From: Flavobacterium tibetense
GTDB taxonomy: Bacteria > Bacteroidota > Bacteroidia > Flavobacteriales > Flavobacteriaceae
Reading direction: 5' to 3'
NCBI RefSeq assembly: GCF_003293845.1
Contig: NZ_QLST01000003.1
Coordinates: forward strand, 124,001 to 188,000
DNA length: 64,000 bases
Shown here: positions 7,939 through 20,591 of the stretch, piece by piece
How positions within the stretch are numbered: the first letter of the stretch is position 1
Layout of the letters: each line of letters starts with the position of its first letter
Program-made: the position numbers and the translations under genes
Notes under the pieces: generated by a model
Told to the model about the DNA's origin: nothing
The model's input: the letters and a program-made list of their open reading frames with translations, nothing else
The model's database searches: none

Positions 7939-8592
7939 ATGATAAAAAAAAGTTCTTATTTTTTAGGAATTGGAATTCTTGTTTTAGTAGTTTCATCGGG
8001 TTTTAACTCGTTTAAAATTGAAAAATTAGAAGGATTTCATTTGGAAGATGGAGAGACAATCGTTTACCATGTTCCTTCCGAAGAAGAAGAAGTTGAGGAA
8101 ACAGTTGAAAATACAATTGCTGTTCCTTACGTAGGTAAGACATATGCAGGTTTTAAACAAGCAATGGCTTATAGAGAATCAAGAGGAATTTTACATTTAG
8201 TAAATCCTTATGGTTACATGGGAAAATACCAATTTGGAAGAAGTACATTACGAACCATTGGTATTTATGATTTTCAGGAGTTCTTAAGAAATGCCGAGTG
8301 GCAAGATAAAGCGTTCAGAGCTTTATTAGAAAAAAACAAATGGGAGCTTCGTAAAGAAATCGAAAAGTATTCTGGTAAAGTAATCAATGGTGTTCAAATT
8401 ACAGAATCAGGATTATTAGCAGCAGCGCATTTAGCGGGAGCTGGTTCAGTTAAAAAGTACTTAAGAAGTAATGGTTCTAACGGATTTAAAGACGGTTTTG
8501 GAACTAGTTTAAGAAGTTACATTAAATTATTTAAAGGCTATGACGTTTCGCACATAGAAGCGGATGCCAATGCAAAAGTGCTTTTAGACTAA
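7939..8592 (+). CDS. Predicted exported lysozyme-like / peptidoglycan-binding protein
   Basis: 217 residues with an N-terminal membrane or signal segment (KKSSYFLGIGILVLVVSSG), an acidic linker (SEEEEVEETVEN) and a C-terminal domain at about residues 60-200. That domain starts with FKQAMAYRESRGI and has NPYGYMGKYQFGRSTLRTIG and a GLLAAAHLAGAGSVKKYL helix. The Glu in AYRESRG is placed like the catalytic Glu of goose-type/transglycosylase folds. Bacteroidota homologues are usually named peptidoglycan-binding protein. The enzymatic role is inferred. ATG 7939 is chosen over GTG 7912. It is monocistronic with its own promoter and terminator. Confidence 0.7.
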   Translation: MIKKSSYFLGIGILVLVVSSGFNSFKIEKLEGFHLEDGETIVYHVPSEEEEVEETVENTIAVPYVGKTYAGFKQAMAYRESRGILHLVNPYGYMGKYQFGRSTLRTIGIYDFQEFLRNAEWQDKAFRALLEKNKWELRKEIEKYSGKVINGVQITESGLLAAAHLAGAGSVKKYLRSNGSNGFKDGFGTSLRSYIKLFKGYDVSHIEADANAKVLLD

Positions 8593-8610
8593 AAATTACA
8601 CGAGTTGTAA

Positions 8611-9333
8611 TTAAAATTTATGGATAATAAAAATGCAAGGTCGCTTATGTAAGTCGACCTTGTTTTTTTTCCAATCGTTTACCGTTAGCGTTTTTATGAA
8701 TTCTGTGGGTAAGGTGATATCACAAGCCACACAAATATGGGTGTTGGGCTGAAGTGTTGCCAACATATCTTCAAAAATTTTATTGTTTCGATACGGTGTT
8801 TCAATAAACAATTGCGACTGATTTTTTTCAAAAGAAATGCGTTCCAATTGTTTTAAGGTGCTTTTCTTTTCGCTAGCATCAATGGGTAAATAACCGTTAA
8901 AAGTAAAACTTTGACCATTCATACCGCTAGCCATTATGGCTAATAAAATAGAACTTGGTCCTACTAATGGCACCACTTGAATCCCTTTTTCATGAGCTAA
9001 TTTTACAATAACAGCGCCAGGATCAGCTATACCTGGGCAGCCGGCTTCACTCATTAACCCTATATTTCTTCCTTCTAAAAGAGGTTGAATCATATTTTGA
9101 TAATCGGCAACCTCAGTGTGTTTGTTGAGTAAAGAAAGTCTTAATTCGGCTTGTTTTTTATCGGGAGCAATGCTCTTTATGAATTTTCTTGCGGTTTTGT
9201 CGTTTTCCACAATGTAATCATCAATGAAATCGATACTTCTTTTAATAGTTTGCGGCATTACATCTTCAGGATTCATTTCGCCTAAAGTGGTTGGAATAAG
9301 ATATAATTTGCCTAAAAAAGTGATGGGTTTCAT
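8611..9333 (-). CDS. SAM-dependent methyltransferase, RsmI-like
   Basis: Tetrapyrrole-methylase fold protein of 240 residues related to RsmI, the 16S rRNA C1402 2'-O-methyltransferase. Visible motifs are LYLIPTTLGE at the N-terminus, GLMSEAGCPGIADPGA (SAM-binding loop, about residues 92-107), VPLVGPSSILLAIMASG and LFIETPYRNN. It lacks the C-terminal extension of canonical RsmI (about 280 residues), so it is probably the second, shorter paralogue common in Bacteroidota; the exact target is uncertain. The stop region overlaps the terminator of the convergent gene. Confidence 0.82.
   Translation of the reverse strand: MKPITFLGKLYLIPTTLGEMNPEDVMPQTIKRSIDFIDDYIVENDKTARKFIKSIAPDKKQAELRLSLLNKHTEVADYQNMIQPLLEGRNIGLMSEAGCPGIADPGAVIVKLAHEKGIQVVPLVGPSSILLAIMASGMNGQSFTFNGYLPIDASEKKSTLKQLERISFEKNQSQLFIETPYRNNKIFEDMLATLQPNTHICVACDITLPTEFIKTLTVNDWKKNKVDLHKRPCIFIIHKF
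8636..8670 (+). terminator. Rho-independent terminator inside the convergent gene
   Basis: CAAGGTCG and CGACCTTG pair, with an inner CTTA/TAAG extension, followed by eight T. It ends the lysozyme-like transcript and lies within the last codons of the opposite-strand methyltransferase gene. Confidence 0.85.
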
Positions 9334-9361
9334 GGGATTTTATTTATTGCAAAAATACAAA

Positions 9362-9452
9362 TAAAAAAAGTCCCACCGAAGCAGGACTAAAGATTTTCAT
9401 CTACGGCATATAGCCTTATTGTGATAAGATTAAAGATTTGAAAGTTTAATCT
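9362..9452 (-). ncRNA. tracrRNA of the type II-C CRISPR-Cas system
   Basis: Read on the minus strand, a stretch at 9428-9443 is perfectly complementary over 16 nt to the CRISPR repeat (TTTCAAATCTTTAATC against GATTAAAGATTTGAAA). After a small bulge, CACAAT pairs with the repeat start GTTGTG. A nexus-like hairpin follows (AAGGC-tatat-GCCG), and then a terminator stem AGTCC/GGACT with a CTTCGG-type loop and a T-run at 9363-9369. This is the order anti-repeat, nexus, terminator known from II-C tracrRNAs such as that of Neisseria. Predicted length is about 88-91 nt. The RNA guides crRNA maturation by RNase III and loads Cas9. It points away from cas9. Confidence 0.92.
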
Positions 9453-9456
9453 GTTG

Positions 9457-9488
9457 CAAATTAAATACATTTATTGTTAATTTGCAAA
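9457..9488 (-). promoter_or_regulatory. Promoter of the tracrRNA
   Basis: On the minus strand a TTTG at 9488-9485 is followed after 20 nt by TTAATTTG (9464-9457), 7 of 8 matches to TAnnTTTG. The start site would fall near 9451, at the base of the anti-repeat hairpin. The -33 box lies inside a perfect 16-bp palindrome, TTAATTTGCAAATTAA (9477-9492). Confidence 0.65.
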
Positions 9489-9556
9489 TTAAGATAAACA
9501 ATTCGAGAGTGTTTGGACTTTTGTTAATGATACAAAATCTAATTACTTTTCAACTA

Positions 9557-9622
9557 GGATATTTTTTCTAGTCATTTTAATCAAATTATTTATAAAACAC
9601 CTTTGCAGAGGTGTTTTTATTT
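9557..9622 (+). ncRNA. Candidate short RNA between tracrRNA and cas9
   Basis: A promoter-like pair, TTTG (9520-9523) then 20 nt then TACTTTTC (9544-9551), precedes an ACTAG/CTAGT hairpin. A strong terminator follows: AAAACACCT and AGGTGTTTT around TTGCAG, then TTTTTATTTTT. The implied product is about 60 nt. There is no open reading frame. It could equally be an attenuator for transcription heading to cas9. Confidence 0.35.
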
Positions 9623-9713
9623 TTCAAATCACAATTTTATACAAATAATACATAAATTAGGATTCTTTATACAAATAAATACATTATTATATAGCAAAGA
9701 TATTTTTTTTATT

Positions 9714-9721
9714 TATATTTG
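9714..9721 (+). promoter_or_regulatory. -7 promoter element of cas9
   Basis: TATATTTG matches TAnnTTTG exactly, 49 bp before the cas9 ATG. No clear TTG is seen at -33. The region is extremely AT-rich, so the match is suggestive. Confidence 0.55.
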
Positions 9722-9769
9722 GACTATAAAAAGAGGAAAAAATATCAATTATTTTGTAAAATATTCATT

Positions 9770-12700
9770 ATGAGCGGTTTAAAACTTGGATTAGATTTAG
9801 GAACGAATAGTATTGGATGGGCAATTCGAGACACAAATAAAAAAGGTAATCAAATTATTGGTGCTAATGTGATTGTGTTTCCACAAGGAGTTGGAGAAGA
9901 AAAAGGAGTGGAATTTTCTTTGGCTTCTGAAAGAACAAAACATAGAGCTTTAAGAAAATTATATAAAAGAAGGAAAAAGAGAAAAACTGATTTATTAAAA
10001 CTTTTAATAGAAAATGGCTTTTGTCCTTTAACCAATGATGAGTTATTGCTTTGGTCTGTTTATAAAAAAGGACAGGAAATGAGATATCCAACAGGGAATT
10101 ATGATTTTTCAGAATGGATAAAAATTAATCCTTATGAAGTAAGAGCAAAAGCAGTTAATTCTATTGTTTCAAAGTTAGAGTTAGGACGTGCTTTGTATCA
10201 TATGTGTCAAAGAAGAGGCTTTAAAAGCGGGCGAAAAGATGCTGATGCTGGAAAAGACTTAATTCAATTTCAAAAAGAAAGAGAGTTATTAGAAAAAAAT
10301 GGTTTCAAAACTTTAGGCGAATATTACTTTGATTTACTTGTAAAGGGTGAAAAAGTAAGAAAAACAAAATTTAGTGCCGACGATCAAGAGGTGAATTCGT
10401 CACGAATTAGTTATGTTGAAGAATTTAACTTTTTAATGAAGAGCCAGAACATTGAGAAAGAATTAGCAGATAAGTTTTTTGATACTATCTTTTTTCAAAG
10501 ACCATTAAAATCTCAAAAAGGGTCGGTTGGTAAATGTACTTTAGAGAAAACAAAGTCACGCTGCGCTATAAGTCATCCATTGTTTGAAGAGTTTAGAATG
10601 TTTCAGTATTTGAATTCTATTAAAATTAAAGAGAGAAACAGCGAAAAGTTTATTTTTCTGTCAGAATATCCAGAATATTATAAAATAGCCGAAGATAAGT
10701 TCTATAGACTTAGTGCCAAAAATTTCAAATTTGTTGATATTTCAAAAGGTATTAATAATCAAGCAAAAAAAGAAAGTCTGTTTTTTGAGTTTAATTATAA
10801 TGATAAATACCCAGTTGTAGGAAGCCCAACGGTTAGTAAGTTGATTGAGGTTTTTGATGCGGAAAATTGGAAGGATTGTAAAAGAATAATTCAATCAAAA
10901 TATAAAAAACAAGACAATAAAAGTGTTGATGAATTGATTGATGAACTTTGGCATACACTTTTTTTTTCGGGAGATTTTGTTAATGATGTTACTTCGGATA
11001 AAATAAAAAGTTTTATTAGAAACCGTTTTTCGATTTCTGAAGAAAAAGTAAATTACTATGAAAGTATAAATTTAAAACAAGGCTATTCTTCGTTGAGTAA
11101 AAAAGCAATTGTAAAGATTTTACCTTATTTAGAAGAAAAAATAATTTATCCGTATGCTGTTTTCTTCGCAAATATTGATGTTATTATTGGAAAAGAAAAA
11201 TGGAATGAAAACAAGCAATTTATTCAGGATACTATTATTGATATTATTTCGAGATATAAAGATGAAATATTAAAAATTGATATTGTTAATGGTTTGGTTG
11301 GTGATTTTATTAAAGAATACGACAATTCCAATTATGATTATTTTCTGGACGAAACAGATAGAAAGAATGTTTTAGAAAAAATCAAAGTTTTTTATGGAAA
11401 ATATCTTTGGGATAAAATGTCTGAACTTGAAAAAGAAGCACTTCAGAATGAAATTGAAATCACTTTTCAAAACCAGTTACAGAAAAGAAGAGTTGGAGGA
11501 TATTATTTATCTAAACCAAGAATAGATGAAATCATCAAAGACTTTTTAATTCAAGAATATAAAGTTTCAAGAGAACAAGCTGATAAATTGTATCATCCAT
11601 CAGCAATGGATGCTTATCCGCAAAGTCAAGATGGTTTTTTAGGGTTGCCTTTTACTAATTCGATTAAAAATCCAATGGCAATGCGAACACTGTTTTATTT
11701 GCGTAAATTGGTAAATACATTATTAAAAGAAAAGAAAATTGCTCCAGATACAGAAATTATTATAGAATTAGCTAGAGAATTGAATGACAAAAATAAAAGG
11801 TTGGCAATTGAGAGATGGCAACGCGAAAGAGAAAGTGAAAATAAGAAGTTTAGAGAAAAATTAGAAGAATTAGCAAAAGATACCAATTCAATTGTCACCG
11901 AAACAGATGTAATTAAATACAGATTATGTCAGGAACAGAATAATAAGTGTTTATACACTAATGAAACTATTAATTGCGAAAAATTATTAGGGTCTAATCC
12001 TCAATTTGATATAGAACATACTTTTCCTAGAAGTAAATCATTTGATAATTCATTAGTTAACAAAACATTGGCTGATAAAAAATTCAATCAAATAAAAGGA
12101 AATCAAATTCCACAAGAATTGCCAGATAGATACAAGCAAAATTTCATAAATAATACAAGCCATTGGAAAGAAACAATTGAAAATTTAGAAGAGAGAATTG
12201 AGCAGCAAAAATATTTTTCCAAAGTTGCCAGTACTGTTGAGCAAAAAAATAGGGCTATCCAGCAACGACATTATTTGAAATTGGAATTGGATTATTGGAA
12301 ACAAAAATTATATAGATTTACTGCGACTGAAATAAAACCTAATTTCAAAAACAGCCAGTTGGTTGATACAGGAATTATTACAAAATATTCTGAATTGTTT
12401 TTAAAATCGTTATTCCAAAGAGTCTTTCCTGCGAAAGGAACAATGGTTGCAGATGTCAGAAAATCTTGGGGTATAGAAGCAAAAGACAGAAACTATCATT
12501 ATCATCACGCTATTGATGCGATTGTGCTTTCGTGTATGGATAAAAGTATTCGTGATGGATTGGCAGAAGCATTCAAAGAATCGGAGGAGAATAGATATAA
12601 TGATAAGTTTAAAATCAAAAAACCTTGGAATACTTTTACAGAAGATGTTAATCAATTAAAAAATAATATAATTGTAGTTCATAATCATAAAAATACGATT

Positions 12701-13651
12701 GATAAACAAACGGTAAAGAAATTAAGAAAGAGAAATAAAATTCAATATGATAAATTAGGAAATATTATCTATGAGAAAGGTCAAGGCATAAGAGCATCAT
12801 TACATAAAGATACTTTCTATGGCGCAATTGAAAGAGAAAATGAAAATAGTGAAAAGGAAATATGGTTTGTTATTCGAAAACCTGTTACAAATGCGTTTTC
12901 TGATGCTGAAGTAAATGCTATTGTTGACGAAGGAATTAAAAGTAGAATTATAAAACATGGACTTAAAAATGTAAAAACTGAAGAAGGATGGATTTTATTG
13001 CCAAGCGAAAAGGATAAACAAGGAAAGGAAATCAAGGAAATGTTGATAAAAAAAATCCGGGTAAAAACGGCTAATAAAAATCTTCCAAAAATAAAAGCGC
13101 AAAGTCATGTTGCTCAGGGGAAAAGAAAAGAGTATAAAGAAAGTTATTATGCTACTTTAGAAAATATTTTCGCAATGGCAATTTATGAAACGGTGAATGA
13201 TAAAGGTAAAAAAGAACAAGCTTTTAATACTATTTCGGCTTTTGATTTGGCAAAACATAATCAAGGAAATGTTAAATTAGAAATGCCAGTAGAAGAAAAT
13301 GTTTTTAAAAATAAAGGAAAAAAAAGTGAAATTTTAATTCCGTTATCTAAGGTTTTAAAAGTGAATCAAATGGCTCTTTTTTATGAAAATAATCCAGAAG
13401 AATTAAAAACTATTTCTAACGAAAGTTTGAGTAAGCGATTGTTTAAAATAACACAATTTGAAAGTGATGGCAGAATTCAATTTCGTCATCATGCTCAAGG
13501 TGGAGCCGATAAAGATTTAAAAAAGGAATCTTCTTTGGATTTTGAAAAATCAGCTCAAAAATTGAGGATTAGTTTAAGTAATATAAAGGCAATTTATGAG
13601 GGAAAAGATTTTATAATACATCCTTCAGGAAAAATTGATTTTTTGATTTAG
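9770..13651 (+). CDS. cas9: CRISPR-associated endonuclease Cas9 (type II-C)
   Basis: RNA-guided double-strand DNA endonuclease, the interference effector of the locus. It has 1293 residues from ATG 9770 (MSGLKLGLDLGTNSIGW); the longer frame from a TTG overlaps the promoter. RuvC-I has Asp9, and an arginine-rich bridge helix follows at about 55-80 (HRALRKLYKRRKKRK). RuvC-II is EIIIELARE with Glu666, the HNH domain is FDIEHTFPRSKSFDNS with His750, and RuvC-III is HHAIDAIVLSC with His913 and Asp916. All catalytic residues are present, so both nickase centres should be active. No csn2 or cas4 is nearby, hence II-C. Cas1 and cas2 are not downstream but 4 kb away on the other strand. The PAM cannot be read from this sequence. 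Confidence 0.98.
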   Translation: MSGLKLGLDLGTNSIGWAIRDTNKKGNQIIGANVIVFPQGVGEEKGVEFSLASERTKHRALRKLYKRRKKRKTDLLKLLIENGFCPLTNDELLLWSVYKKGQEMRYPTGNYDFSEWIKINPYEVRAKAVNSIVSKLELGRALYHMCQRRGFKSGRKDADAGKDLIQFQKERELLEKNGFKTLGEYYFDLLVKGEKVRKTKFSADDQEVNSSRISYVEEFNFLMKSQNIEKELADKFFDTIFFQRPLKSQKGSVGKCTLEKTKSRCAISHPLFEEFRMFQYLNSIKIKERNSEKFIFLSEYPEYYKIAEDKFYRLSAKNFKFVDISKGINNQAKKESLFFEFNYNDKYPVVGSPTVSKLIEVFDAENWKDCKRIIQSKYKKQDNKSVDELIDELWHTLFFSGDFVNDVTSDKIKSFIRNRFSISEEKVNYYESINLKQGYSSLSKKAIVKILPYLEEKIIYPYAVFFANIDVIIGKEKWNENKQFIQDTIIDIISRYKDEILKIDIVNGLVGDFIKEYDNSNYDYFLDETDRKNVLEKIKVFYGKYLWDKMSELEKEALQNEIEITFQNQLQKRRVGGYYLSKPRIDEIIKDFLIQEYKVSREQADKLYHPSAMDAYPQSQDGFLGLPFTNSIKNPMAMRTLFYLRKLVNTLLKEKKIAPDTEIIIELARELNDKNKRLAIERWQRERESENKKFREKLEELAKDTNSIVTETDVIKYRLCQEQNNKCLYTNETINCEKLLGSNPQFDIEHTFPRSKSFDNSLVNKTLADKKFNQIKGNQIPQELPDRYKQNFINNTSHWKETIENLEERIEQQKYFSKVASTVEQKNRAIQQRHYLKLELDYWKQKLYRFTATEIKPNFKNSQLVDTGIITKYSELFLKSLFQRVFPAKGTMVADVRKSWGIEAKDRNYHYHHAIDAIVLSCMDKSIRDGLAEAFKESEENRYNDKFKIKKPWNTFTEDVNQLKNNIIVVHNHKNTIDKQTVKKLRKRNKIQYDKLGNIIYEKGQGIRASLHKDTFYGAIERENENSEKEIWFVIRKPVTNAFSDAEVNAIVDEGIKSRIIKHGLKNVKTEEGWILLPSEKDKQGKEIKEMLIKKIRVKTANKNLPKIKAQSHVAQGKRKEYKESYYATLENIFAMAIYETVNDKGKKEQAFNTISAFDLAKHNQGNVKLEMPVEENVFKNKGKKSEILIPLSKVLKVNQMALFYENNPEELKTISNESLSKRLFKITQFESDGRIQFRHHAQGGADKDLKKESSLDFEKSAQKLRISLSNIKAIYEGKDFIIHPSGKIDFLI

Positions 13652-13657
13652 CAATAT

Positions 13658-13675
13658 TGGTGTATATTTACACCA
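13658..13675. promoter_or_regulatory. Palindromic operator upstream of parDE
   Basis: TGGTGTATATTTACACCA is an inverted repeat (TGGTGTA / TACACCA with a 4-bp centre) lying 7 bp after the cas9 stop and 16 bp before the parD ATG. Its place is right for autorepression by the ribbon-helix-helix antitoxin. Confidence 0.65.
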
Positions 13676-13690
13676 CTAAATAAAAATAGT

Positions 13691-13930
13691 ATGGCACGTC
13701 AAAGTATCACTTTAGCCAATCAAAACGATGAATGGTTAAAACAACAAGTAGCAAATGAAGAATTTACCAGCAAAAGTGAAGCTGTAAATTATTTGATTAA
13801 ACAAGCACGTGAACAAGATGCTTATGTAGAGTTTGTTCGAATGAAATTAGAGAAAGCAGAAAAAAGTGGTTTTAGCACAAAGACTAAAGAAGAATTATTA
13901 GCAGAAATTAAGAAAAAATTGAATGTATAG
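13691..13930 (+). CDS. parD: ParD family ribbon-helix-helix antitoxin
   Basis: 79-residue antitoxin. The N-terminal half (MARQSITLANQNDEWLKQQV, then FTSKSEAVNYLIKQAR) is a ribbon-helix-helix DNA-binding domain with the SxSEAVNxLI pattern of ParD/CopG proteins. The charged C-terminal half (EFVRMKLEKAEKSGF) should bind and neutralise ParE. The stop overlaps the parE start by 8 bp, which indicates translational coupling. It lies between cas9 and the CRISPR array, preceded by a palindromic operator that it probably binds. An unrelated function is unlikely given the partner gene. Confidence 0.92.
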   Translation: MARQSITLANQNDEWLKQQVANEEFTSKSEAVNYLIKQAREQDAYVEFVRMKLEKAEKSGFSTKTKEELLAEIKKKLNV

Positions 13931-14198
13931 TTATAAACTTAATGTTCAAGCTGAAGAAGATTTGACTCGGATTTTTGAATATGGTGTTGGTAAATTTGGA
14001 TTGGAACAAGCGGAGAAGTATTATGAGATGTTTTTTGAATCTTTTTCCTCGATAGCATTAAATCCTTTTCTTTTTCCCAATGCAAATCATTATAAAAAAG
14101 GATATCGCTACTGTGTTTGTGGTGTAGATACCATTTTTTATAAAGTAAATGGCGATGAAATCGAAATCATGGCGATAATAGGAAGGCAAAATTTTTAA
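13923..14198 (+). CDS. parE: ParE/RelE family toxin
   Basis: 91-residue toxin of the RelE/ParE fold. Visible features are the N-terminal strand YSKYKL-like (MYSYKLNVQAEEDLTRIFEYG), the central helix pair ending SSIALNPFLFP, the GYRYCVCGVDTIFYKV strands and the C-terminal IMAIIGRQNF. By family, ParE proteins poison DNA gyrase; RelE relatives cleave mRNA. Which applies here is not determinable. It is translationally coupled to parD. The CRISPR array begins 74 bp after the stop with no recognisable terminator between, so transcripts from the parDE promoter could run into the array. Confidence 0.9.
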   Translation: MYSYKLNVQAEEDLTRIFEYGVGKFGLEQAEKYYEMFFESFSSIALNPFLFPNANHYKKGYRYCVCGVDTIFYKVNGDEIEIMAIIGRQNF

Positions 14199-14214
14199 AG
14201 TTCATTGACATAAA

Positions 14215-14248
14215 GTTTTTCAAAAGCTTAAACAACTAAAACCACAAC
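14215..14248 (+). repeat. Degenerate inverted copy of the CRISPR repeat, left flank
   Basis: On the plus strand this resembles the reverse complement of the repeat: TTTTCAAA (14217-14224), CTT (14227-14229) and AAACCACAAC (14239-14248) match in order. The last block pairs perfectly over 10 bp with the first repeat (14273-14282), and TTTTCAAA pairs with its TTTGAAAA. A CAGA-GTT-TCTG mini-hairpin follows at 14248-14258. Confidence 0.6.
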
Positions 14249-14272
14249 AGAGTTTCTGCGATAGCGCACTCA

Positions 14273-16547
14273 GTTGTGGTTTGATTAAAGATTTGAAAAC
14301 ACGATATTCATTGTAATTGACTTGATGCCACCAGAACCGTTGTGGTTTGATTAAAGATTTGAAAACACGATATTGCCCTTTAAAAATTGTGGATGGCGAA
14401 CTTGGTTGTGGTTTGATTAAAGATTTGAAAACACGATATTTTAAAAAAAGTCAACAATGCAGTTAATCAAGTTGTGGTTTGATTAAAGATTTGAAAACAC
14501 GATATTTACTCCGTATTTTTCAACATAATCCAACCAGTTGTGGTTTGATTAAAGATTTGAAAACACGATATTAAGTTACAGGATCATAAGCCTTAACTCT
14601 ATGTTGTGGTTTGATTAAAGATTTGAAAACACGATATTTTGGAGTTGAAATTATTAAGCAAACCACCCGTTGTGGTTTGATTAAAGATTTGAAAACACGA
14701 TATTGATTTAGAATTGAAAGTTCAGCAGATTTACGTTGTGGTTTGATTAAAGATTTGAAAACACGATATTTAAAGCCGCCTTAATTTGTGGAAGCTCTGC
14801 GTTGTGGTTTGATTAAAGATTTGAAAACACGATATTAACGTAAACGAATACGGAATCGTGCAAGTAGTTGTGGTTTGATTAAAGATTTGAAAACACGATA
14901 TTGAACGTAACCAGTTACAGGACCATATTCATGTTGTGGTTTGATTAAAGATTTGAAAACACGATATTAAGATTAAAGAGGACTACATCAGACATGATGT
15001 TGTGGTTTGATTAAAGATTTGAAAACACGATATTCGTGAATTAGGAATGGCAACAGGCGACAACGTTGTGGTTTGATTAAAGATTTGAAAACACGATATT
15101 TTGTTTCGGCTTCCATTAATGCTAGTTCAGTTGTGGTTTGATTAAAGATTTGAAAACACGATATTAACGATACATACAATGTGTGGCGGAAAACAGTTGT
15201 GGTTTGATTAAAGATTTGAAAACACGATATTTTACCGATTAAAAATATTATTGACATCGTTGTTGTGGTTTGATTAAAGATTTGAAAACACGATATTTCA
15301 AACGCAAACTAGAATCAGGCGGTTATGGTTGTGGTTTGATTAAAGATTTGAAAACACGATATTCCCGAAAGAAATCACTGATGGCTTTTATGGTTGTGGT
15401 TTGATTAAAGATTTGAAAACACGATATTTACCAGTTCCAACATTGTTTTCGTCCTCTAGTTGTGGTTTGATTAAAGATTTGAAAACACGATATTCAAGTT
15501 CTACAGCTACACGAGTTTTACCAGTTGTGGTTTGATTAAAGATTTGAAAACACGATATTATTCTGCTTTTTTTAGAGTGGCCATAGCTGTTGTGGTTTGA
15601 TTAAAGATTTGAAAACACGATATTAAACTCACCATCAGCAGTAAGTACATCATAGTTGTGGTTTGATTAAAGATTTGAAAACACGATATTTTGTACGGCA
15701 AACTGCCAACATAACCGAAAGTTGTGGTTTGATTAAAGATTTGAAAACACGATATTGAAGTTTATCAGAGTAAATTCCTAGATCAGTTGTGGTTTGATTA
15801 AAGATTTGAAAACACGATATTCTTTGTTTATTCCAAATCCACCGCCAGCTAGTTGTGGTTTGATTAAAGATTTGAAAACACGATATTATGTTGAAGGAAC
15901 TATCTTTAAAAACGATGGTTGTGGTTTGATTAAAGATTTGAAAACACGATATTGAAATATTATCAAACCAAACATTCTCGACAGTTGTGGTTTGATTAAA
16001 GATTTGAAAACACGATATTAATAACTGATTTTCATCTGCTAAAGGCAAAGTTGTGGTTTGATTAAAGATTTGAAAACACGATATTAAAAATTATTCAATC
16101 AAGAGGTTGGGATAAGTTGTGGTTTGATTAAAGATTTGAAAACACGATATTCCCTAACTCCTTTACCTCATGGATTTGATAGTTGTGGTTTGATTAAAGA
16201 TTTGAAAACACGATATTTACAGATAGTTTTATTAACCCATATTCATGGTTGTGGTTTGATTAAAGATTTGAAAACACGATATTATGTGTTATAATAAGGC
16301 AACAAAAAAGGTAGTTGTGGTTTGATTAAAGATTTGAAAACACGATATTTGCCGACATACGATTAGTAAAAGACGAAAGGTTGTGGTTTGATTAAAGATT
16401 TGAAAACACGATATTCTAAAAATGTTTGTATTCTGCCATGTTATGGTTGTGGTTTGATTAAAGATTTGAAAACACGATATTGGACAACTCAATTTGCGAC
16501 ATTAATAGGTAGTTGTGGTTTGATTAAAGATTTGAAAACACGATATT
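14273..16547 (+). CRISPR. Type II-C CRISPR array, 35 repeats and 34 spacers
   Basis: The 36-bp repeat starts GTTGTGGTTTGATTAAAG and ends AAAACACGATATT; all 35 copies look identical. Period is 66 bp, with 65 bp at five units (spacers 13, 17, 19, 20 and 23 are 29 nt); all other spacers are 30 nt. Plus-strand transcription follows from the tracrRNA, whose anti-repeat and terminator only fit repeats read on this strand, and from the GTTGTG 5' end usual in II-C. No TAnnTTTG promoter is seen in the 74-bp left flank. Spacers 5 and 10 share a 15-nt core. Neither terminal repeat is degenerate. Reading frames seen across the array are artefacts of the periodic repeat. Confidence 0.99.
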
Positions 16548-16577
16548 GGCGACGCCTTTATCGATTGACTATCAATA

Positions 16578-16648
16578 AATTATCGTGTAATTTGCAAATA
16601 AAAAATGCTTCTTTTTTGTGGTGATAAGGCAAAATTGACGCATTTTTT
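16578..16648 (+). repeat. Degenerate inverted repeat copy plus hairpin, right flank
   Basis: AATTATCGTGTAATTTGCAAAT (16578-16599) resembles the reverse complement of the repeat's 3' half, with small insertions. It lies exactly 30 nt after the last repeat. It is followed by a stem AAAAAATGC/GCATTTTTT (16600-16608, 16640-16648) that ends in a T-run and encloses GTGATAAGGC, similar to the CACAATAAGGC of the tracrRNA. The stem could terminate the pre-crRNA. Confidence 0.5.
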
Positions 16649-16681
16649 GTTTTCTGTAATAGTAGCTTTGCTATTTTAACT

Positions 16682-16780
16682 AAAAAAAGCGACTTATAAA
16701 GCCGCTAATTGTAGAAGCTAGGTAATACCATGCTTCGTTTTTGTAATGTATTTTCTTGGAACAACCCGCGAACGTAATTA
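16682..16780 (-). ncRNA. Candidate structured small RNA downstream of the array
   Basis: On the minus strand a perfect -7 element TATATTTG (16793-16786) is followed by a GC-richer stretch (TTCGCGGGTTGTTCC) and a hairpin GAAGC...GGT-AAT-ACC...GCTTC. A terminator stem AGCGGCTT/AAGTCGCT with seven T follows at about 16682-16705. The predicted size is about 100 nt, with no reading frame. TTGTAAT/ATTACAA at the 5' side can add a stem. It may belong to a known flavobacterial family such as Flavo-1; I could not confirm this. Everything else in the gap 16548-16926 appears non-coding. Confidence 0.6.
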
Positions 16781-16785
16781 CAATA

Positions 16786-16793
16786 CAAATATA
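16786..16793 (-). promoter_or_regulatory. -7 element of the candidate small RNA
   Basis: TATATTTG on the minus strand, exact match to TAnnTTTG, with the predicted start site near 16780. No well-spaced TTG box is seen. Confidence 0.5.
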
Positions 16794-16902
16794 CAAAACT
16801 AGTTGCAAATTGACCTTTTTTATATTATTGATTTTATGTACTAAAGTAACGAGCATATTTCTGCTATTTTTAAAATAAATAAATATCGTTTTTTCTTTTT
16901 TG

Positions 16903-16910
16903 TATCTTTG
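16903..16910 (+). promoter_or_regulatory. -7 promoter element of the second toxin-antitoxin pair
   Basis: TATCTTTG matches TAnnTTTG and lies 16 bp before the antitoxin ATG, giving a very short leader. Confidence 0.65.
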
Positions 16911-16926
16911 TAAAAATACCTTGATT

Positions 16927-17151
16927 ATGAGAGTAGTAATAGAAGCAGATAGTCAATTTAAAAAAATGTTAGAAGAAATTGCTATTGCTATAAAAGCTAA
17001 AATAACTTTTGAAGAAAATGAAACTGATTTTTGGGATGAGTTGCCGGCTCATGTTCAAAAAGGAATTTTAGATGCTAAATCTCAAGTAGCACAAGGCAAT
17101 TACAAAGTACATGAAGATGTAATGGAGGAATACAAAAAGCGTTACAAATAA
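16927..17151 (+). CDS. Antitoxin of a RelE/ParE-type toxin-antitoxin pair
   Basis: 74-residue antitoxin from ATG 16927 (MRVVIEADSQFKKML); an upstream TTG would place the start inside the promoter. The C-terminal part ELPAHVQKGILDAKSQVAQGNYKVHEDVMEEYKKRY has the layout of many RelE/ParE antitoxins, where a helix and a basic tail wrap the toxin. No clear ribbon-helix-helix is visible. The stop TAA and the toxin ATG share a base (TAATG), showing translational coupling. It is not close in sequence to the ParD on the other side of the array, so the two modules did not arise by a simple recent duplication. Confidence 0.82.
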   Translation: MRVVIEADSQFKKMLEEIAIAIKAKITFEENETDFWDELPAHVQKGILDAKSQVAQGNYKVHEDVMEEYKKRYK

Positions 17152-17435
17152 TGCAAATTATTTGGTCTAAAAATGCTCAAATTACTTTTGATGCTATTGT
17201 AGTTTATCTTGAAAATAATTTTGGCAATACTGTTGCAAAGAAATTTATTGCCAAAGCCAATTCAAACATTCAAGTTATTGCTAAATTTCCAAATCTTTAC
17301 AAAGCCATTTCATTAAAACAAAGCGTAAGAAAAGCAACCATAAGTAAAGTTTGTTCTTTTTACTATGAAGTAAATGAAGATACAATTGTTGTTTTATACT
17401 TTTGGGATAACCGACAAGAACCCATTGATTTTTAA
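17151..17435 (+). CDS. RelE/ParE family toxin
   Basis: 94-residue toxin of the RelE/ParE fold: the opening strand MQIIWSKNAQITFDAIVVYLENNFG, helices with KFIAKANSNIQVIAKFPNLY, strands SVRKATISKVCSFYYEV and the closing IVVLYFWDNRQEP. The WDNRQ(D/E)P ending is typical of this family. The mRNA or gyrase target is not decidable. It follows the antitoxin with a one-base overlap. Its stop overlaps the cas2 stop on the opposite strand by 4 bp (17432-17435), so neither gene has a private 3' untranslated region and their transcripts must be complementary at the ends. Confidence 0.88.
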   Translation: MQIIWSKNAQITFDAIVVYLENNFGNTVAKKFIAKANSNIQVIAKFPNLYKAISLKQSVRKATISKVCSFYYEVNEDTIVVLYFWDNRQEPIDF

Positions 17436-17761
17436 AATAATTCTAATTGGGTAGGTTGTGGTGCTTTTGGTACTTCGGCTTTGCCCCAAAAATTTAAAAT
17501 ATTACCAAATTGTTTATCGGTTATTCGTAAGATGCTCACTTTGCCTAATGGTGGAAGTAATTGGTGAATTCTTTTTTCGTGAACATCTGCACTTTCGCTA
17601 CTGGCACAATGCCTAACATAAACCGAATATTGCATCATAGAAAAGCCATCTTTTAAAAGATTATTTCTAAAACCAGAAGCATTTCTTCGGTCTTTTTTAG
17701 TTTCGGTTGGTAAGTCAAAAAATACAAATAGCCACATAATTCGGTATCCATTTAGTTCCAT
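17432..17761 (-). CDS. cas2: CRISPR-associated protein Cas2
   Basis: Small ferredoxin-fold subunit of the Cas1-Cas2 spacer integrase; structural, bridging two Cas1 dimers. 109 residues with the N-terminal strand MWLFVFFDLPTETKKDRR carrying Asp16, the FRNNLLKDGFSMMQYSVYVRHC segment typical of type II Cas2, and a C-terminal proline-rich tail. Its start overlaps the end of cas1 by 10 bp, so the two are translated together. Both lie on the strand opposite to cas9, the array and the toxin genes. Confidence 0.96.
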   Translation of the reverse strand: MELNGYRIMWLFVFFDLPTETKKDRRNASGFRNNLLKDGFSMMQYSVYVRHCASSESADVHEKRIHQLLPPLGKVSILRITDKQFGNILNFWGKAEVPKAPQPTQLELF

Positions 17762-18636
17762 AATTTGGGATATTTAATTTTCTTTCTATCGCCCGTGTAA
17801 CATTGTTGTAAAGAACTTGCCGTTTTTTGTAATGCTACCATCAACGGACTTTTTTCTTCTTTAAAATACACCGTTCGGGTTAGAATTTGCAATAATTCAG
17901 CTTTTATTGCTGTGTTTAATTCTTGTTCAGTATAGTTTTGCATTATTTCAGCAACTTTTTCATCAACAATTGGTCGGAAAGGTTCCATGATATCATCTGC
18001 CAATGCGAATGCGTTGTATTTACTTTTATGGTGAATGCCTAAAGTGTTTAATAAGCCACTTCCCGAAAGTGCTCTAGCGGTTGCAGCTCTTAAAATAGCA
18101 TAACCATAATTTAAGAAATTGTTGGGATAATCGCCAAATCGTTCTCTTTTGAAATTGTGTTCAAAAAATGATTTCCAATAAAAGTTGGCTGCAACACCTT
18201 CCATATTTGAAGTATCACCGCTCAATACTTTTGAAGCAAGAAAATCAAAATTATTGGTTTTGGAAGTTATGTTTTGAAGTAATATACCTTGATTGGTAAT
18301 TTTTTCCATTACGGTTTGTTGCCAAAGTTGTTTTTTTAGTGGAACACTTGCATTGATTTGATTTTTAAAAATCTCTTGTTGGATGTGATGGCTGTTGAGG
18401 TTCAAAAACATGCCATTAGGTAAATGATTGGTGTTGCAAATGATAACCGCAGTATTGTTATCAACAAGTAAATTTAATGCTGGAACACTCAAATAGATTT
18501 CTGGATGATCAATAACAATATAGCCAATATCTTCTATCGGAATATTGGTTTCACGCGTATCGGTTTTAATTACAAGTTGTAAATTTTTGGTAGTAAGAGA
18601 GGCTTTGTTTTCGAGTAAAATTGATTTTTTTAGCAT
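17752..18636 (-). CDS. cas1: CRISPR-associated endonuclease/integrase Cas1 (type II)
   Basis: Catalytic subunit of spacer integration at the array. 294 residues, normal for type II. The N-terminal beta domain runs to about residue 85. The alpha domain carries the metal ligands Glu146 (NMEGVAANFYW), His203 (GIHHKSKYNAF) and Glu218 (DIMEPFRP). All are intact, so the enzyme should be active. It starts 69 bp after the stop of the phosphatase gene on the same strand, with only a weak stem (AAAATCA/TGATTTT) between. Read-through from the dnaA-phosphatase transcript is therefore possible. Separation from cas9 is unusual for a II-C operon. Confidence 0.97.
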   Translation of the reverse strand: MLKKSILLENKASLTTKNLQLVIKTDTRETNIPIEDIGYIVIDHPEIYLSVPALNLLVDNNTAVIICNTNHLPNGMFLNLNSHHIQQEIFKNQINASVPLKKQLWQQTVMEKITNQGILLQNITSKTNNFDFLASKVLSGDTSNMEGVAANFYWKSFFEHNFKRERFGDYPNNFLNYGYAILRAATARALSGSGLLNTLGIHHKSKYNAFALADDIMEPFRPIVDEKVAEIMQNYTEQELNTAIKAELLQILTRTVYFKEEKSPLMVALQKTASSLQQCYTGDRKKIKYPKLWN

Positions 18637-18705
18637 GAAAAAAGAGTTAAAATTTACTCTAATTTACTAAAAATCAATTTAATGGTTATTTTTTTTTTGA
18701 TTTTC

Positions 18706-19164
18706 TTACTTGATTAATCGCTTTGCTATTTGTTCACAAACTTCATCTAATAATTGAAAAACATGTTCAAATCCGTCTTCACCTCCAAAGTAAGGATCTG
18801 GAACTTCTGCTTTTTTATTGGGTGTAATTTCGTCTAAAATTAGCTTCACTTTTGATTTTACGATTTCATTAGGTGCTAATTGCAATACATTTTGATAATT
18901 GGATTGGTCCATTACATAAATGTAGTCAAAAGTATGAAAATCTTGAACTTGAAATTGGCGTGCACGTTGGTTCGAGATATCAATTCCATATTTTGAAGCG
19001 ATTTTCATAGAACGACTATCGGGCAATTCGTCTGCATGCCAACCACCAGTTCCAGCAGAATCTACGTGGAATTTATCTTTGGGTAATTTGGATTGTAAAA
19101 TGCCTTCTGCCAATGGCGAGCGACATATGTTTCCCAAACAAACCATTAAGATTTTAGTAGCCAT
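18706..19164 (-). CDS. Low-molecular-weight protein-tyrosine phosphatase
   Basis: Cytosolic LMW-PTP fold phosphatase (or arsenate-reductase-like relative), 152 residues. The P-loop CLGNICRS gives the nucleophile Cys9 and Arg15, and the general acid Asp is in VPDPYFGG (about residue 122). The phosphotyrosine specificity is by family; in bacteria these often act on exopolysaccharide tyrosine kinases, none of which is nearby. Its ATG overlaps the dnaA stop (TAATG), so it is translationally coupled to dnaA. Cas1 follows on the same strand. Confidence 0.92.
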   Translation of the reverse strand: MATKILMVCLGNICRSPLAEGILQSKLPKDKFHVDSAGTGGWHADELPDSRSMKIASKYGIDISNQRARQFQVQDFHTFDYIYVMDQSNYQNVLQLAPNEIVKSKVKLILDEITPNKKAEVPDPYFGGEDGFEHVFQLLDEVCEQIAKRLIK

Positions 19165-20591
19165 TACAACGACAATTTCTTGTTGATATCGTCAACGAAT
19201 TTTTTAAATTGTTTATCGGTAGTCACCAAGTTGTCTACAGTTTTACAAGCATGCAATACAGTAGCGTGATCGCGATCTCCTATTTGTGATCCAATATTAG
19301 CTAATGAAGCTTTGGTAAATTTCTTAGCAAAAAACATGGCTAATTGTCTAGCTTGCACAACGTGACGTTTTCTAGTTTTAGATTTCAATGTTTCTAAATC
19401 CAATTGAAAATAATCCGATACTACTTTTTGAATATAGTCAATAGAAACTTCTCGTTTTACATTTTTAACGAATTTTTCTACTACTTGTTTCGCCAATTCA
19501 ATTGTAACTTCTTTCTTGTTGAACGAAGATTGGGCTATTAAAGAGATTATAGCACCTTCTAGTTCACGAACGTTGGATTTGATATGTTTGGCTACATATT
19601 CAATAATATCTTCTGGTATTTCAACGCCATCTCTGTAAAGAATGTTTTTTAAGATAGAAATACGGGTTTCAAAATCAGGTTGGTTCAATTCAGCAGACAA
19701 TCCCCATTTGAAACGTGATAATAAGCGTTGCTCAATATCTTGCATGTCAACAGGTGCTTTATCAGAAGTTAGGATAACTTGCTTGCCATTTTGGTGCAAA
19801 TGATTGAAAATGTGAAAAAACACATCTTGTGTTCCCGATTTACCTGATAAAAATTGGACGTCGTCTATAATTAAAACATCGATTAATTGGTAAAAATGAA
19901 TAAAATCATTTCTAGTATTTTTCTTAACCGAATCAATGTACTGTTGGGTGAAAATTTCAGCAGAAATATACAAAACCGTTTTTTCTGGAAATTTATCTTT
20001 GATTTCCACACCAATAGCGTGTGCTAAATGCGTTTTTCCAAGTCCAACTCCTCCAAAAATCAACAAAGGATTGAAAGAAGTTCCGCCTGGTTTATTGGCA
20101 ACAGCCATGCCAGCACTTCTTGCTAAACGGTTGGAATCTCCTTCTAAGAAATTATCAAAGCTATAATTGGCATTCAATTGCGAATCAATGTTGATATTTC
20201 TTATTCCAGGTATTATGAACGGGTTTTTAAGTTCTGGGTTTTTTTGAACAATTGGTACATCAACCTCTTGCATTTTTACAGCTTGTCTGTTGTTGCTAGG
20301 AATTTGTTCAGTAAATGGAAGTTTATTGCCATAAGTGTTTTCCATCTTAATTTTATACAATAACTTTGCATTTGGTCCTAGTTCTTTGGTTAATGCAACT
20401 TTTAAAAGTTTTACATAGTGTTCTTCTAGCCATTCGTAGAAAAACTTACTAGGCACTTGAATAGATAATGCGTTATCGTTAAGGTCAACTGATTGGATAG
20501 GTTCAAACCATGTTTTATAGGCTTGCTCCTGAATATTATCTTTTATAAAAGACAGACAGTTTTCCCATACTGATTGCGCAGTTTTATTCAT
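19164..20591 (-). CDS. dnaA: Chromosomal replication initiator protein DnaA
   Basis: AAA+ ATPase that binds DnaA boxes and opens oriC. 475 residues in the usual four domains: N-terminal oligomerisation domain (WENCLSFIKDNIQEQAYKTWF), a short linker, and the ATPase core with Walker A GGVGLGKTHLAHA (180-187 for GGVGLGKT) and Walker B LIIDDVQFL. The C-terminal DNA-binding domain has the signature GDRDHATVLHACKTV. Length and motifs are complete. It starts the unit dnaA-phosphatase and possibly cas1-cas2. Upstream is a 281-bp AT-rich gap toward a divergent thioesterase gene. Confidence 0.98.
   Translation of the reverse strand: MNKTAQSVWENCLSFIKDNIQEQAYKTWFEPIQSVDLNDNALSIQVPSKFFYEWLEEHYVKLLKVALTKELGPNAKLLYKIKMENTYGNKLPFTEQIPSNNRQAVKMQEVDVPIVQKNPELKNPFIIPGIRNINIDSQLNANYSFDNFLEGDSNRLARSAGMAVANKPGGTSFNPLLIFGGVGLGKTHLAHAIGVEIKDKFPEKTVLYISAEIFTQQYIDSVKKNTRNDFIHFYQLIDVLIIDDVQFLSGKSGTQDVFFHIFNHLHQNGKQVILTSDKAPVDMQDIEQRLLSRFKWGLSAELNQPDFETRISILKNILYRDGVEIPEDIIEYVAKHIKSNVRELEGAIISLIAQSSFNKKEVTIELAKQVVEKFVKNVKREVSIDYIQKVVSDYFQLDLETLKSKTRKRHVVQARQLAMFFAKKFTKASLANIGSQIGDRDHATVLHACKTVDNLVTTDKQFKKFVDDINKKLSL

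What the first reader, a model, noticed from the sequence alone, without database searches (positions are those of the whole stretch)
13923..14308. CRISPR array starts 74 bp after a toxin stop with no visible promoter between
Seen: no TAnnTTTG element in 14199-14272 and no terminator after parE. Inference: pre-crRNA may be transcribed from the parDE promoter, which carries a palindromic operator (13658-13675). Antitoxin autoregulation would then couple crRNA supply to toxin-antitoxin state.
Basis: inference. Interest (0 to 1): 0.7.

Follow-up and report, generated by a model that had tools for sequence, protein, structure and literature searches.

The report
Antiterminator and hairpin before CRISPR array
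Between a toxin gene and a bacterial CRISPR memory array lies a conserved signal, otherwise found in ribosomal RNA operons, followed by a hairpin that covers the first CRISPR repeat, which suggests that the memory array is read as the tail end of the genes before it.

Summary
In detail: repeat 1 starts 74 nt after the parE stop, with no TAnnTTTG box and no intrinsic terminator found between. The gap is not a CRISPR leader. In this II-C system the first repeat is the leader-distal, oldest one. The gap carries a conserved two-part module. (1) A boxA-like element, GTTCATTGACATA (14200-14212), starts 1 nt after the parE stop. In the whole genome this 13-mer occurs four times: behind each of three 16S genes, and here. 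(2) A partial anti-repeat (14238-14248) folds back on repeat 1. In Cas9-selected Flavobacterium loci with this repeat family, boxA is found in 20 of 23 and the anti-repeat motif in 19 of 23; downstream controls give 0 of 23. Most likely the array is the 3' end of a cas9(-parDE) transcript: boxA keeps polymerase going once translation stops, and the hairpin hides the spacer-less 'extra' repeat. Transcription from upstream is thus supported. The specific toxin-antitoxin coupling is not: the same module follows cas9 directly in many species. boxA upstream of arrays and hairpins over the extra repeat are known elsewhere; a 2025 II-C study says no such hairpin was seen in II-C. No RNA data were available.

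The parts
9719..13651 (+). cas9 (II-C type; in-frame ATG at 9770 is the likelier start)
   Evidence: TIGR01865 412 bits, HNH_4, RuvC_III; ATG seen
9364..9470 (-). putative tracrRNA gene: anti-repeat, tail, terminator hairpin with T run
   Evidence: predicted repeat:tracrRNA duplex -29.1 kcal/mol; sequence; no Rfam match above its cut-off
13643..13675 (+). candidate parDE promoter (TTG-N17-TATATTTA, 13643-13670) overlapped by palindromic operator TGGTGTATATTTACACCA (13658-13675)
   Evidence: operator core conserved in 7 of 7 parDE loci
13691..13930 (+). parD-like antitoxin gene
   Evidence: PF03693 22.5 bits (cut-off 21); TIGR02606 31.7 bits, below its cut-off 46.2
13923..14198 (+). parE-like toxin gene
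   Evidence: PF05016 40.6 bits
14200..14212 (+). boxA-like antiterminator element GTTCATTGACATA, 1 nt after the parE stop
   Evidence: 4 copies genome-wide: 3 behind 16S genes, 1 here; conserved in relatives
14214..14237 (+). imperfect extension of the anti-repeat (TTTTTC..CTTAAAC), predicted to pair with the 3' half of repeat 1
   Evidence: fold of 14200-14308 (z -2.9, 1 of 200 shuffles as low); sequences of relatives
14238..14248 (+). anti-repeat AAAACCACAAC, complementary to the first 10 nt of repeat 1
14249..14272 (+). inner stem-loop of the hairpin
   Evidence: hairpin 14238-14283 folds at -21.0 kcal/mol, z -5.4; compensatory changes in relatives
14273..14308 (+). repeat 1: extra, leader-distal repeat, sequence intact
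   Evidence: identical to the other 34 repeats
14273..16547 (+). CRISPR array, 35 identical 36-nt repeats; the only copies of this repeat in the genome at up to 3 mismatches
17432..17761 (-). cas2
   Evidence: TIGR01573
17752..18636 (-). cas1, type II (NMENI)
   Evidence: TIGR03639 298 bits

Best explanation
The array is the untranslated 3' part of a cas9(-parDE)-CRISPR transcription unit. Polymerase entering from cas9 or parDE is shielded from Rho by ribosomes until the last stop codon. There the boxA-like element in the nascent RNA is bound by NusB/NusE (S10), and the antiterminated polymerase reads through the 2.3-kb array. Just after boxA the transcript carries a cis anti-repeat that folds back on repeat 1. 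This hides the one repeat without its own spacer from tracrRNA and Cas9, so no 'extraneous' crRNA is made from the mRNA tail. Shown here: sequence, position, conservation and predicted structure. Inferred: Nus binding, antitermination, read-through, and suppression of the extraneous crRNA.
For: The 13-mer GTTCWTTGACATA occurs 4 times in the 2.74-Mb genome: 337 nt after each of three 16S genes, and here. Over this genome plus the seven relatives with at most two contigs there are 49 hits: 40 after 16S, 6 at the CRISPR locus, 3 elsewhere; two of those 3 lie antisense in open frames of 138 and 341 codons, the third is non-coding. The rRNA operons of this genome also carry GTTCATAGACATA in front of 16S; boxA upstream of 16S and 23S is the classical arrangement (passages of PMC5725501). 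Of 23 Cas9-selected arrays with this repeat family, 19 have boxA with at most 1 mismatch within 300 nt upstream (0 of 200 shuffles as good, 1 of 200 for L055), and L074 has one just after its cas9 stop; the downstream control is 0 of 23. boxA starts 1-3 nt after a parE stop (7 of 7 loci) or 8-21 nt after a cas9 stop (12 loci). An anti-repeat of at least 10 bp against the actual repeat 1 is present in 17 of 23, with 0 of 500 shuffles reaching it in each of the 17; downstream 0 of 23. Hairpin pairs 12-54, 15-51 and 17-49 change on both sides in 8, 6 and 7 of 25 distinct sequences. In the family, 8 of 397 genomes, from 7 of 237 genera (the window's own included), match boxA + anti-repeat + repeat exactly, reversed pattern 0; the seven other loci all hold a Cas9 end and an array of this repeat family. 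Rho and NusB genes are present. Adding a boxA raised pre-crRNA about tenfold in a published synthetic array (passages of PMC7862264).
Against: No RNA or binding data exist here. boxA is absent from 3 of 23 arrays (L062, L066, L067) and the anti-repeat motif from 4 of 23 (L052, L066, L067, L074). Published work on F. columnare and F. psychrophilum infers repeat-embedded promoters and reports transcripts within the array, also in both parts of an array split by an IS (passages). [quoted passage not shown] The window's own hairpin is among the weaker ones, with an A-A mismatch at the first inner pair, and the predicted tracrRNA:repeat duplex (-29.1) is stronger than the cis fold (-24.9). Two of five covariation measures did not exceed the shuffles (91/500 and 333/500), the sequences are related, and the aligned set was chosen for having the hairpin.
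Confidence: 0.58

Rival explanations
1. Each repeat carries its own promoter (the published view for Flavobacterium II-C). Upstream read-through is then minor noise, and the hairpin only blunts it.
For: Hoikkala 2021 and the F. psychrophilum Cas9 paper infer a TTG element in each repeat and report in-array transcripts (passages). Promoter-like matches of 8 of 9 occur at several places in the array.
Against: In the F. columnare paper the support is a 3-nt TTG motif and eight reads on the array. In this array no match reaches 9 of 9 and the second element depends on the spacer. It does not explain a conserved boxA 1-21 nt after the stop codon of parE or cas9 in 19 loci.
Confidence: 0.3
2. The hairpin is an RNase III processing site that frees the cas9/parE mRNA from the pre-crRNA, like the processing stems after boxA in rRNA operons (that comparison is recalled).
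For: A long stem with variable sequence but kept pairing lies directly after an rRNA-type boxA.
Against: The stem uses the repeat itself, which a plain processing site would not need. It is compatible with the best explanation and not separable here.
Confidence: 0.2
3. One reading: the autoregulated parDE promoter drives the array, so toxin-antitoxin state sets crRNA supply.
For: 74 nt, no terminator found, a parDE promoter candidate with conserved operator, boxA directly after parE.
Against: The module is the same where cas9 is directly upstream; only partial ParD matches remain in L059 and L069. Read-through from cas9 is not excluded, and no regulatory data exist.
Confidence: 0.15
4. GTTCWTTGACATA is not boxA but the -33 part of a promoter (TTG) with TAAACA as its -7 part.
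For: The distance from TTG to TAA is 19-20 nt in 14 of 22 loci, and CTTAAAC is conserved.
Against: The second element lacks TTTG (5-6 of 9 consensus letters, counted by eye). The spacing ranges from 15 to 22. The same 13-mer sits behind each 16S gene listed in eight genomes (two partial rows of G239 taken as one gene).
Confidence: 0.06
5. The inverted repeat acts at DNA level (array boundary, cruciform) or is a relic of an inverted repeat copy.
For: Both strands fold (z -5.4 and -4.4), and the anti-repeat extends imperfectly over most of a repeat.
Against: In 22 of the 23 aligned genus hairpins it is combined with a boxA in fixed orientation behind a same-strand gene (L062 is the exception). 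Inner pairs are compensated.
Confidence: 0.08

Closest known systems
boxA antiterminators upstream of CRISPR arrays (Stringer et al., seen only as cited in PMC7862264; the paper itself was not held)
   Same: boxA-like element upstream of the array; likely use of Nus factors against termination in a long untranslated RNA
   Different: Here it sits 1-21 nt after the stop codon of parE or cas9 in 19 loci, at the leader-distal end of a type II-C array. Whether Stringer et al. covered Bacteroidota or II-C I could not check.
Leader-repeat hairpins that block the extraneous crRNA (type II-A as cited in PMC12080349; Cas13 systems, PMC13187072, passages)
   Same: Upstream sequence pairs with the first, spacer-less repeat of the transcript
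   Different: Type II-C; at the oldest, leader-distal repeat; combined with boxA. PMC12080349 states, citing Liao et al. 2022, that no hairpin with the extra repeat was found in II-C.
II-C ecrRNA countermeasures (PMC12080349): mutated extra repeat, Rho-independent terminator, hairpin in the ecrRNA guide
   Same: Same problem, same end of the array; the inner stem also covers the ecrRNA guide region
   Different: Repeat 1 is intact, no terminator was found, and the repeat itself is paired
F. columnare II-C locus with ParDE between cas9 and array (PMC8092290, passages)
   Same: Gene order and ParDE position; direction of transcription toward the leader
   Different: boxA and hairpin do not appear in the passages read; repeat promoters are proposed there
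Ribosomal RNA operon boxA of the same genome
   Same: Identical 13 letters, same strand sense
   Different: Followed by a CRISPR array instead of rRNA

Membership tests
Type II-C CRISPR-Cas | Cas9, type II Cas1 and Cas2 | tested here: met
   TIGR01865, TIGR03639, TIGR01573
Type II-C CRISPR-Cas | no csn2 or cas4 | tested here: inconclusive
   none among the nine proteins scanned; other ORFs were not scanned
Type II-C CRISPR-Cas | tracrRNA pairing with the repeat | tested here: met
   predicted duplex -29.1 kcal/mol at 9364-9470 (-); not shown as RNA
Type II-C CRISPR-Cas | first transcribed repeat is the oldest | tested here: met
   among 23 arrays the first repeat differs from consensus in 8, the last in 0; the window's own repeats are all identical
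boxA antiterminator | same sequence as the rRNA boxA of the same genome | tested here: met
boxA antiterminator | NusB and Rho encoded in the genome | tested here: met
boxA antiterminator | binds NusB/NusE and prevents termination | not testable with these tools
   needs RNA-protein and reporter assays
Leader-repeat hairpin blocking ecrRNA | upstream sequence pairs with the extra repeat more than chance | tested here: met
   10 bp, 0 of 500 shuffles; z -5.4; at least 10 bp in 17 of 23 arrays, window included
Leader-repeat hairpin blocking ecrRNA | formed by the leader (spacer-acquiring end) | tested here: not met
   it lies at the leader-distal end; therefore 'works like', not a member
Leader-repeat hairpin blocking ecrRNA | suppresses an ecrRNA | not testable with these tools
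   needs small-RNA data
Intrinsic terminator upstream of a II-C array | hairpin followed by a U tract | tested here: not met
   none on the + strand of 13400-16900
ParDE type II toxin-antitoxin | ParD antitoxin gene overlapping a ParE toxin gene, palindromic operator | tested here: met
   PF03693, PF05016; 8-nt overlap; operator core conserved 7 of 7; TIGR02606 below its cut-off

The most novel reading that the evidence does not exclude
In Flavobacteriaceae II-C systems the CRISPR array is the antiterminated 3' untranslated tail of the cas9 operon. boxA placed at the stop codon takes polymerase over from the ribosome, and a cis anti-repeat hides the oldest repeat. This links crRNA output to translation of the upstream gene (cas9 or the toxin) instead of to repeat promoters.
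Probability: 0.4. Interest if true: 0.78.

Novelty: new variant of a known kind. Interest (0 to 1): 0.62.

Why it matters
Two published statements about II-C arrays become directly testable in one clade: that the arrays are expressed from promoters inside the repeats, and that II-C lacks a hairpin over the extra repeat. If the module works as proposed, it shows how a non-coding array can be appended to a coding operon: a handover from ribosome to Nus factors at the stop codon, then a structure that keeps the mRNA tail from becoming a guide RNA. It would also offer a short, portable element for expressing Cas9 arrays behind genes.

Tried and rejected
Rejected: 14199-14272 as a CRISPR leader (polarity); an intrinsic terminator; the hairpin as a tracrRNA gene, because a better tracrRNA candidate lies at 9364-9470 (-); the absence of TAnnTTTG as evidence (background too high for 74 nt). 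An Rfam scan at E up to 5 over 8500-19500 gave nothing relevant. A pattern scan of viral contigs for the module gave 0. The search for related loci with Cas9 returned a single named relative.

Not used as proof: arrays without pairing of 10 bp or more to repeat 1 all have a mutated repeat 1 (6 of 6, versus 2 of 17), but this is largely circular. Counting the anti-repeat motif regardless of repeat 1 gives repeat 1 intact in 15 of 19 versus 0 of 4, p 0.008: suggestive only. The CTTAAAC stretch after boxA is conserved and not fully explained. Literature on boxA in Flavobacterium CRISPR loci: one search (boxA, CRISPR, Flavobacteri) listed 5 papers that by title and abstract start are unrelated and were not opened; searches listed 3 and 2 papers, of which only PMC7862264 was opened (passages).

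Full report
Setting. The window lies in a 2.74-Mb, 56-contig genome. Its nearest named relative is a Flavobacterium sp. MAG with 91% identical Cas9. The locus reads: putative tracrRNA (-), cas9 (+), parD, parE (+), a CRISPR array of 35 identical 36-nt repeats (+), a second ParE-like pair (+), cas2 and cas1 (-). Cas9 and Cas1 match the type II models.

Observation. The gap between the parE stop and repeat 1 is 74 nt, without TAnnTTTG and without a terminator-like site on that strand. The missing box says little, since promoter-like matches of 8 of 9 letters occur about 4 times per kb on the + strand.

Which end it is. In F. columnare new spacers enter at the 3' end of the II-C array and transcription is inferred to run toward that leader (PMC8092290, passages). 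In the 23 arrays compared here the first repeat departs from consensus in 8 and the last in 0. The gap is therefore the leader-distal flank, and repeat 1 is the extra repeat that would give an extraneous crRNA (PMC12080349; abstract, introduction, part of the methods, results and discussion read).

boxA. GTTCATTGACATA starts 1 nt after the parE stop. A whole-genome search for GTTCWTTGACATA gives four hits, three of them 337 nt behind the three 16S genes. In front of 16S the genome reads GTTCATAGACATA. Across this genome and the seven relatives with at most two contigs, 40 of 49 hits follow 16S, 6 are at the CRISPR locus and 3 are elsewhere (coordinates). Of the two relatives without an exact CRISPR copy, G285 has one with one mismatch (L050) and G057 has none (L062). 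In the full set of 27 relatives, 24 have at least one exact hit. Six hits from these listings that were neither assigned to 16S nor to the CRISPR locus were looked at: five lie antisense to open frames of 121-366 codons, one (L106) is non-coding; in the draft genomes not every hit was assigned. The identification as boxA rests on this identity, on the two rRNA positions, and on resemblance to the Legionella CRISPR boxA GTTCTTTAAAA quoted in PMC7862264 (passages).

Relatives. A Cas9 search found 31 of 299 genus genomes; stretches of the 30 others were fetched. Of the 31, 23 have an array of this repeat family (L066 and L067 with variant or short repeats), 2 (L072, L076) have a different 46-nt repeat, and 6 (L058, L068, L071, L073, L075, L077) showed no array of three or more repeats in the stretch. 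In the 23, boxA with at most one mismatch lies within 300 nt upstream in 19; L074 has one just behind its cas9 stop, making 20. L062, L066 and L067 have none. An anti-repeat of at least 10 perfect bp against the actual repeat 1 is present in 17. The motif is also there in L056, whose repeat 1 is mutated, and L060, whose first unit is degenerate, making 19; L052, L066, L067 and L074 lack it. Downstream of the arrays neither feature occurs (0 of 23 each). Five further genomes chosen by the hairpin pattern all have boxA (5 of 5).

What is upstream. boxA starts 1-3 nt after a parE stop in all seven loci where parE is directly upstream, and 8-21 nt after a cas9 stop in 12 loci, and 14 nt in L074. 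In L053 and L082 a GIY-YIG-like gene (recognised by eye) intervenes, in L059 and L069 a partial ParD match, in L063 186 nt that I did not examine. parDE thus looks like an insertion between cas9 and the module.

Hairpin. In the window 14238-14283 folds at -21.0 kcal/mol, z -5.4, 0 of 200 shuffles as low; the longer stretch 14200-14308 is less striking (z -2.9, 1 of 200). On 30 sequences (25 distinct, all chosen for having the hairpin: 23 of the genus, 7 of the family search) 96.4% of pair cells are standard, against 38-50% when slid by 1-3 columns. Four pairs show changes on both sides in 23 cells (shuffled mean 7.1, 0 of 500 as high), but the number of such pairs (91 of 500) and of further pair types (333 of 500) is not above shuffles. 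The outer helix hardly varies because the repeat is fixed, so it says little. In the family search 8 of 397 genomes, from 7 of 237 genera, own genome included, hold boxA + anti-repeat + repeat by an exact pattern (reversed control 0); the seven other loci all contain a Cas9 end and an array of this repeat family.

Mechanism. The simplest account is one transcript from cas9 (and from parDE where present) into the array. The NusG-ribosome contact thought to protect translated RNA from Rho (PMC5725501, passages) ends at the stop codon, just where boxA follows. Rho and NusB are encoded. The anti-repeat then covers the 5' part of repeat 1 and, imperfectly, much of the rest, which should keep it from tracrRNA and Cas9. 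Repeat 1 is unmutated and no terminator was found, so two of the three countermeasures listed for II-C in PMC12080349 are not in use here; the third, a hairpin in the ecrRNA guide, overlaps with this one.

Limits. Everything beyond sequence, position, conservation and predicted folding is inference. Published repeat promoters remain a serious rival; boxA can have other roles than antitermination; and an RNase III release site cannot be told apart from a repeat-hiding hairpin here. Toxin-antitoxin control of crRNA supply is possible in this genome but has no support beyond gene order and the promoter candidate.

Novelty. boxA before CRISPR arrays (cited in PMC7862264), hairpins over the extra repeat in II-A and Cas13 systems (PMC12080349; PMC13187072, passages) and ParDE at this place (PMC8092290) are known. 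Their combination at the oldest end of II-C arrays was not found in the passages read or in searches, and PMC12080349 states, citing Liao et al. 2022, that no hairpin with the extra repeat was seen in II-C. The original boxA-CRISPR paper could not be read.

Noticed in passing
window 16900-17435 (+): A second toxin-antitoxin-like pair (ParE-family toxin, unnamed partner) sits between the leader end of the array and cas2; relatives of it are at the same place in L051, L055 and L065.
   Followed up: partly
L052, L060, L074 upstream of or inside arrays; possibly L053: A hairpin-like stretch (ACAAACACC ... GGTGTGTTTGTGAATCTCCCG) replaces the first letters of CRISPR repeats, twice in L074; it looks like a small repeated element that inserts at repeats.
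   Followed up: no
L106 (G239:C1, about 1964912, - strand): A non-coding copy of the boxA 13-mer, not behind a listed 16S gene.
   Followed up: no
boxA copies in the relatives: The copies behind 16S genes in the near-complete genomes read GTTCATTGACATA, the CRISPR copies mostly GTTCTTTGACATA.
   Followed up: no
window 14214-14237 and relatives: CTTAAAC about 20 nt after the TTG of boxA is conserved beyond what its weak pairing with the repeat explains.
   Followed up: partly
window 16595-16655 (+): A long A/T-flanked hairpin just after the last repeat could terminate array transcripts (fold; not called by the terminator scan).
   Followed up: no
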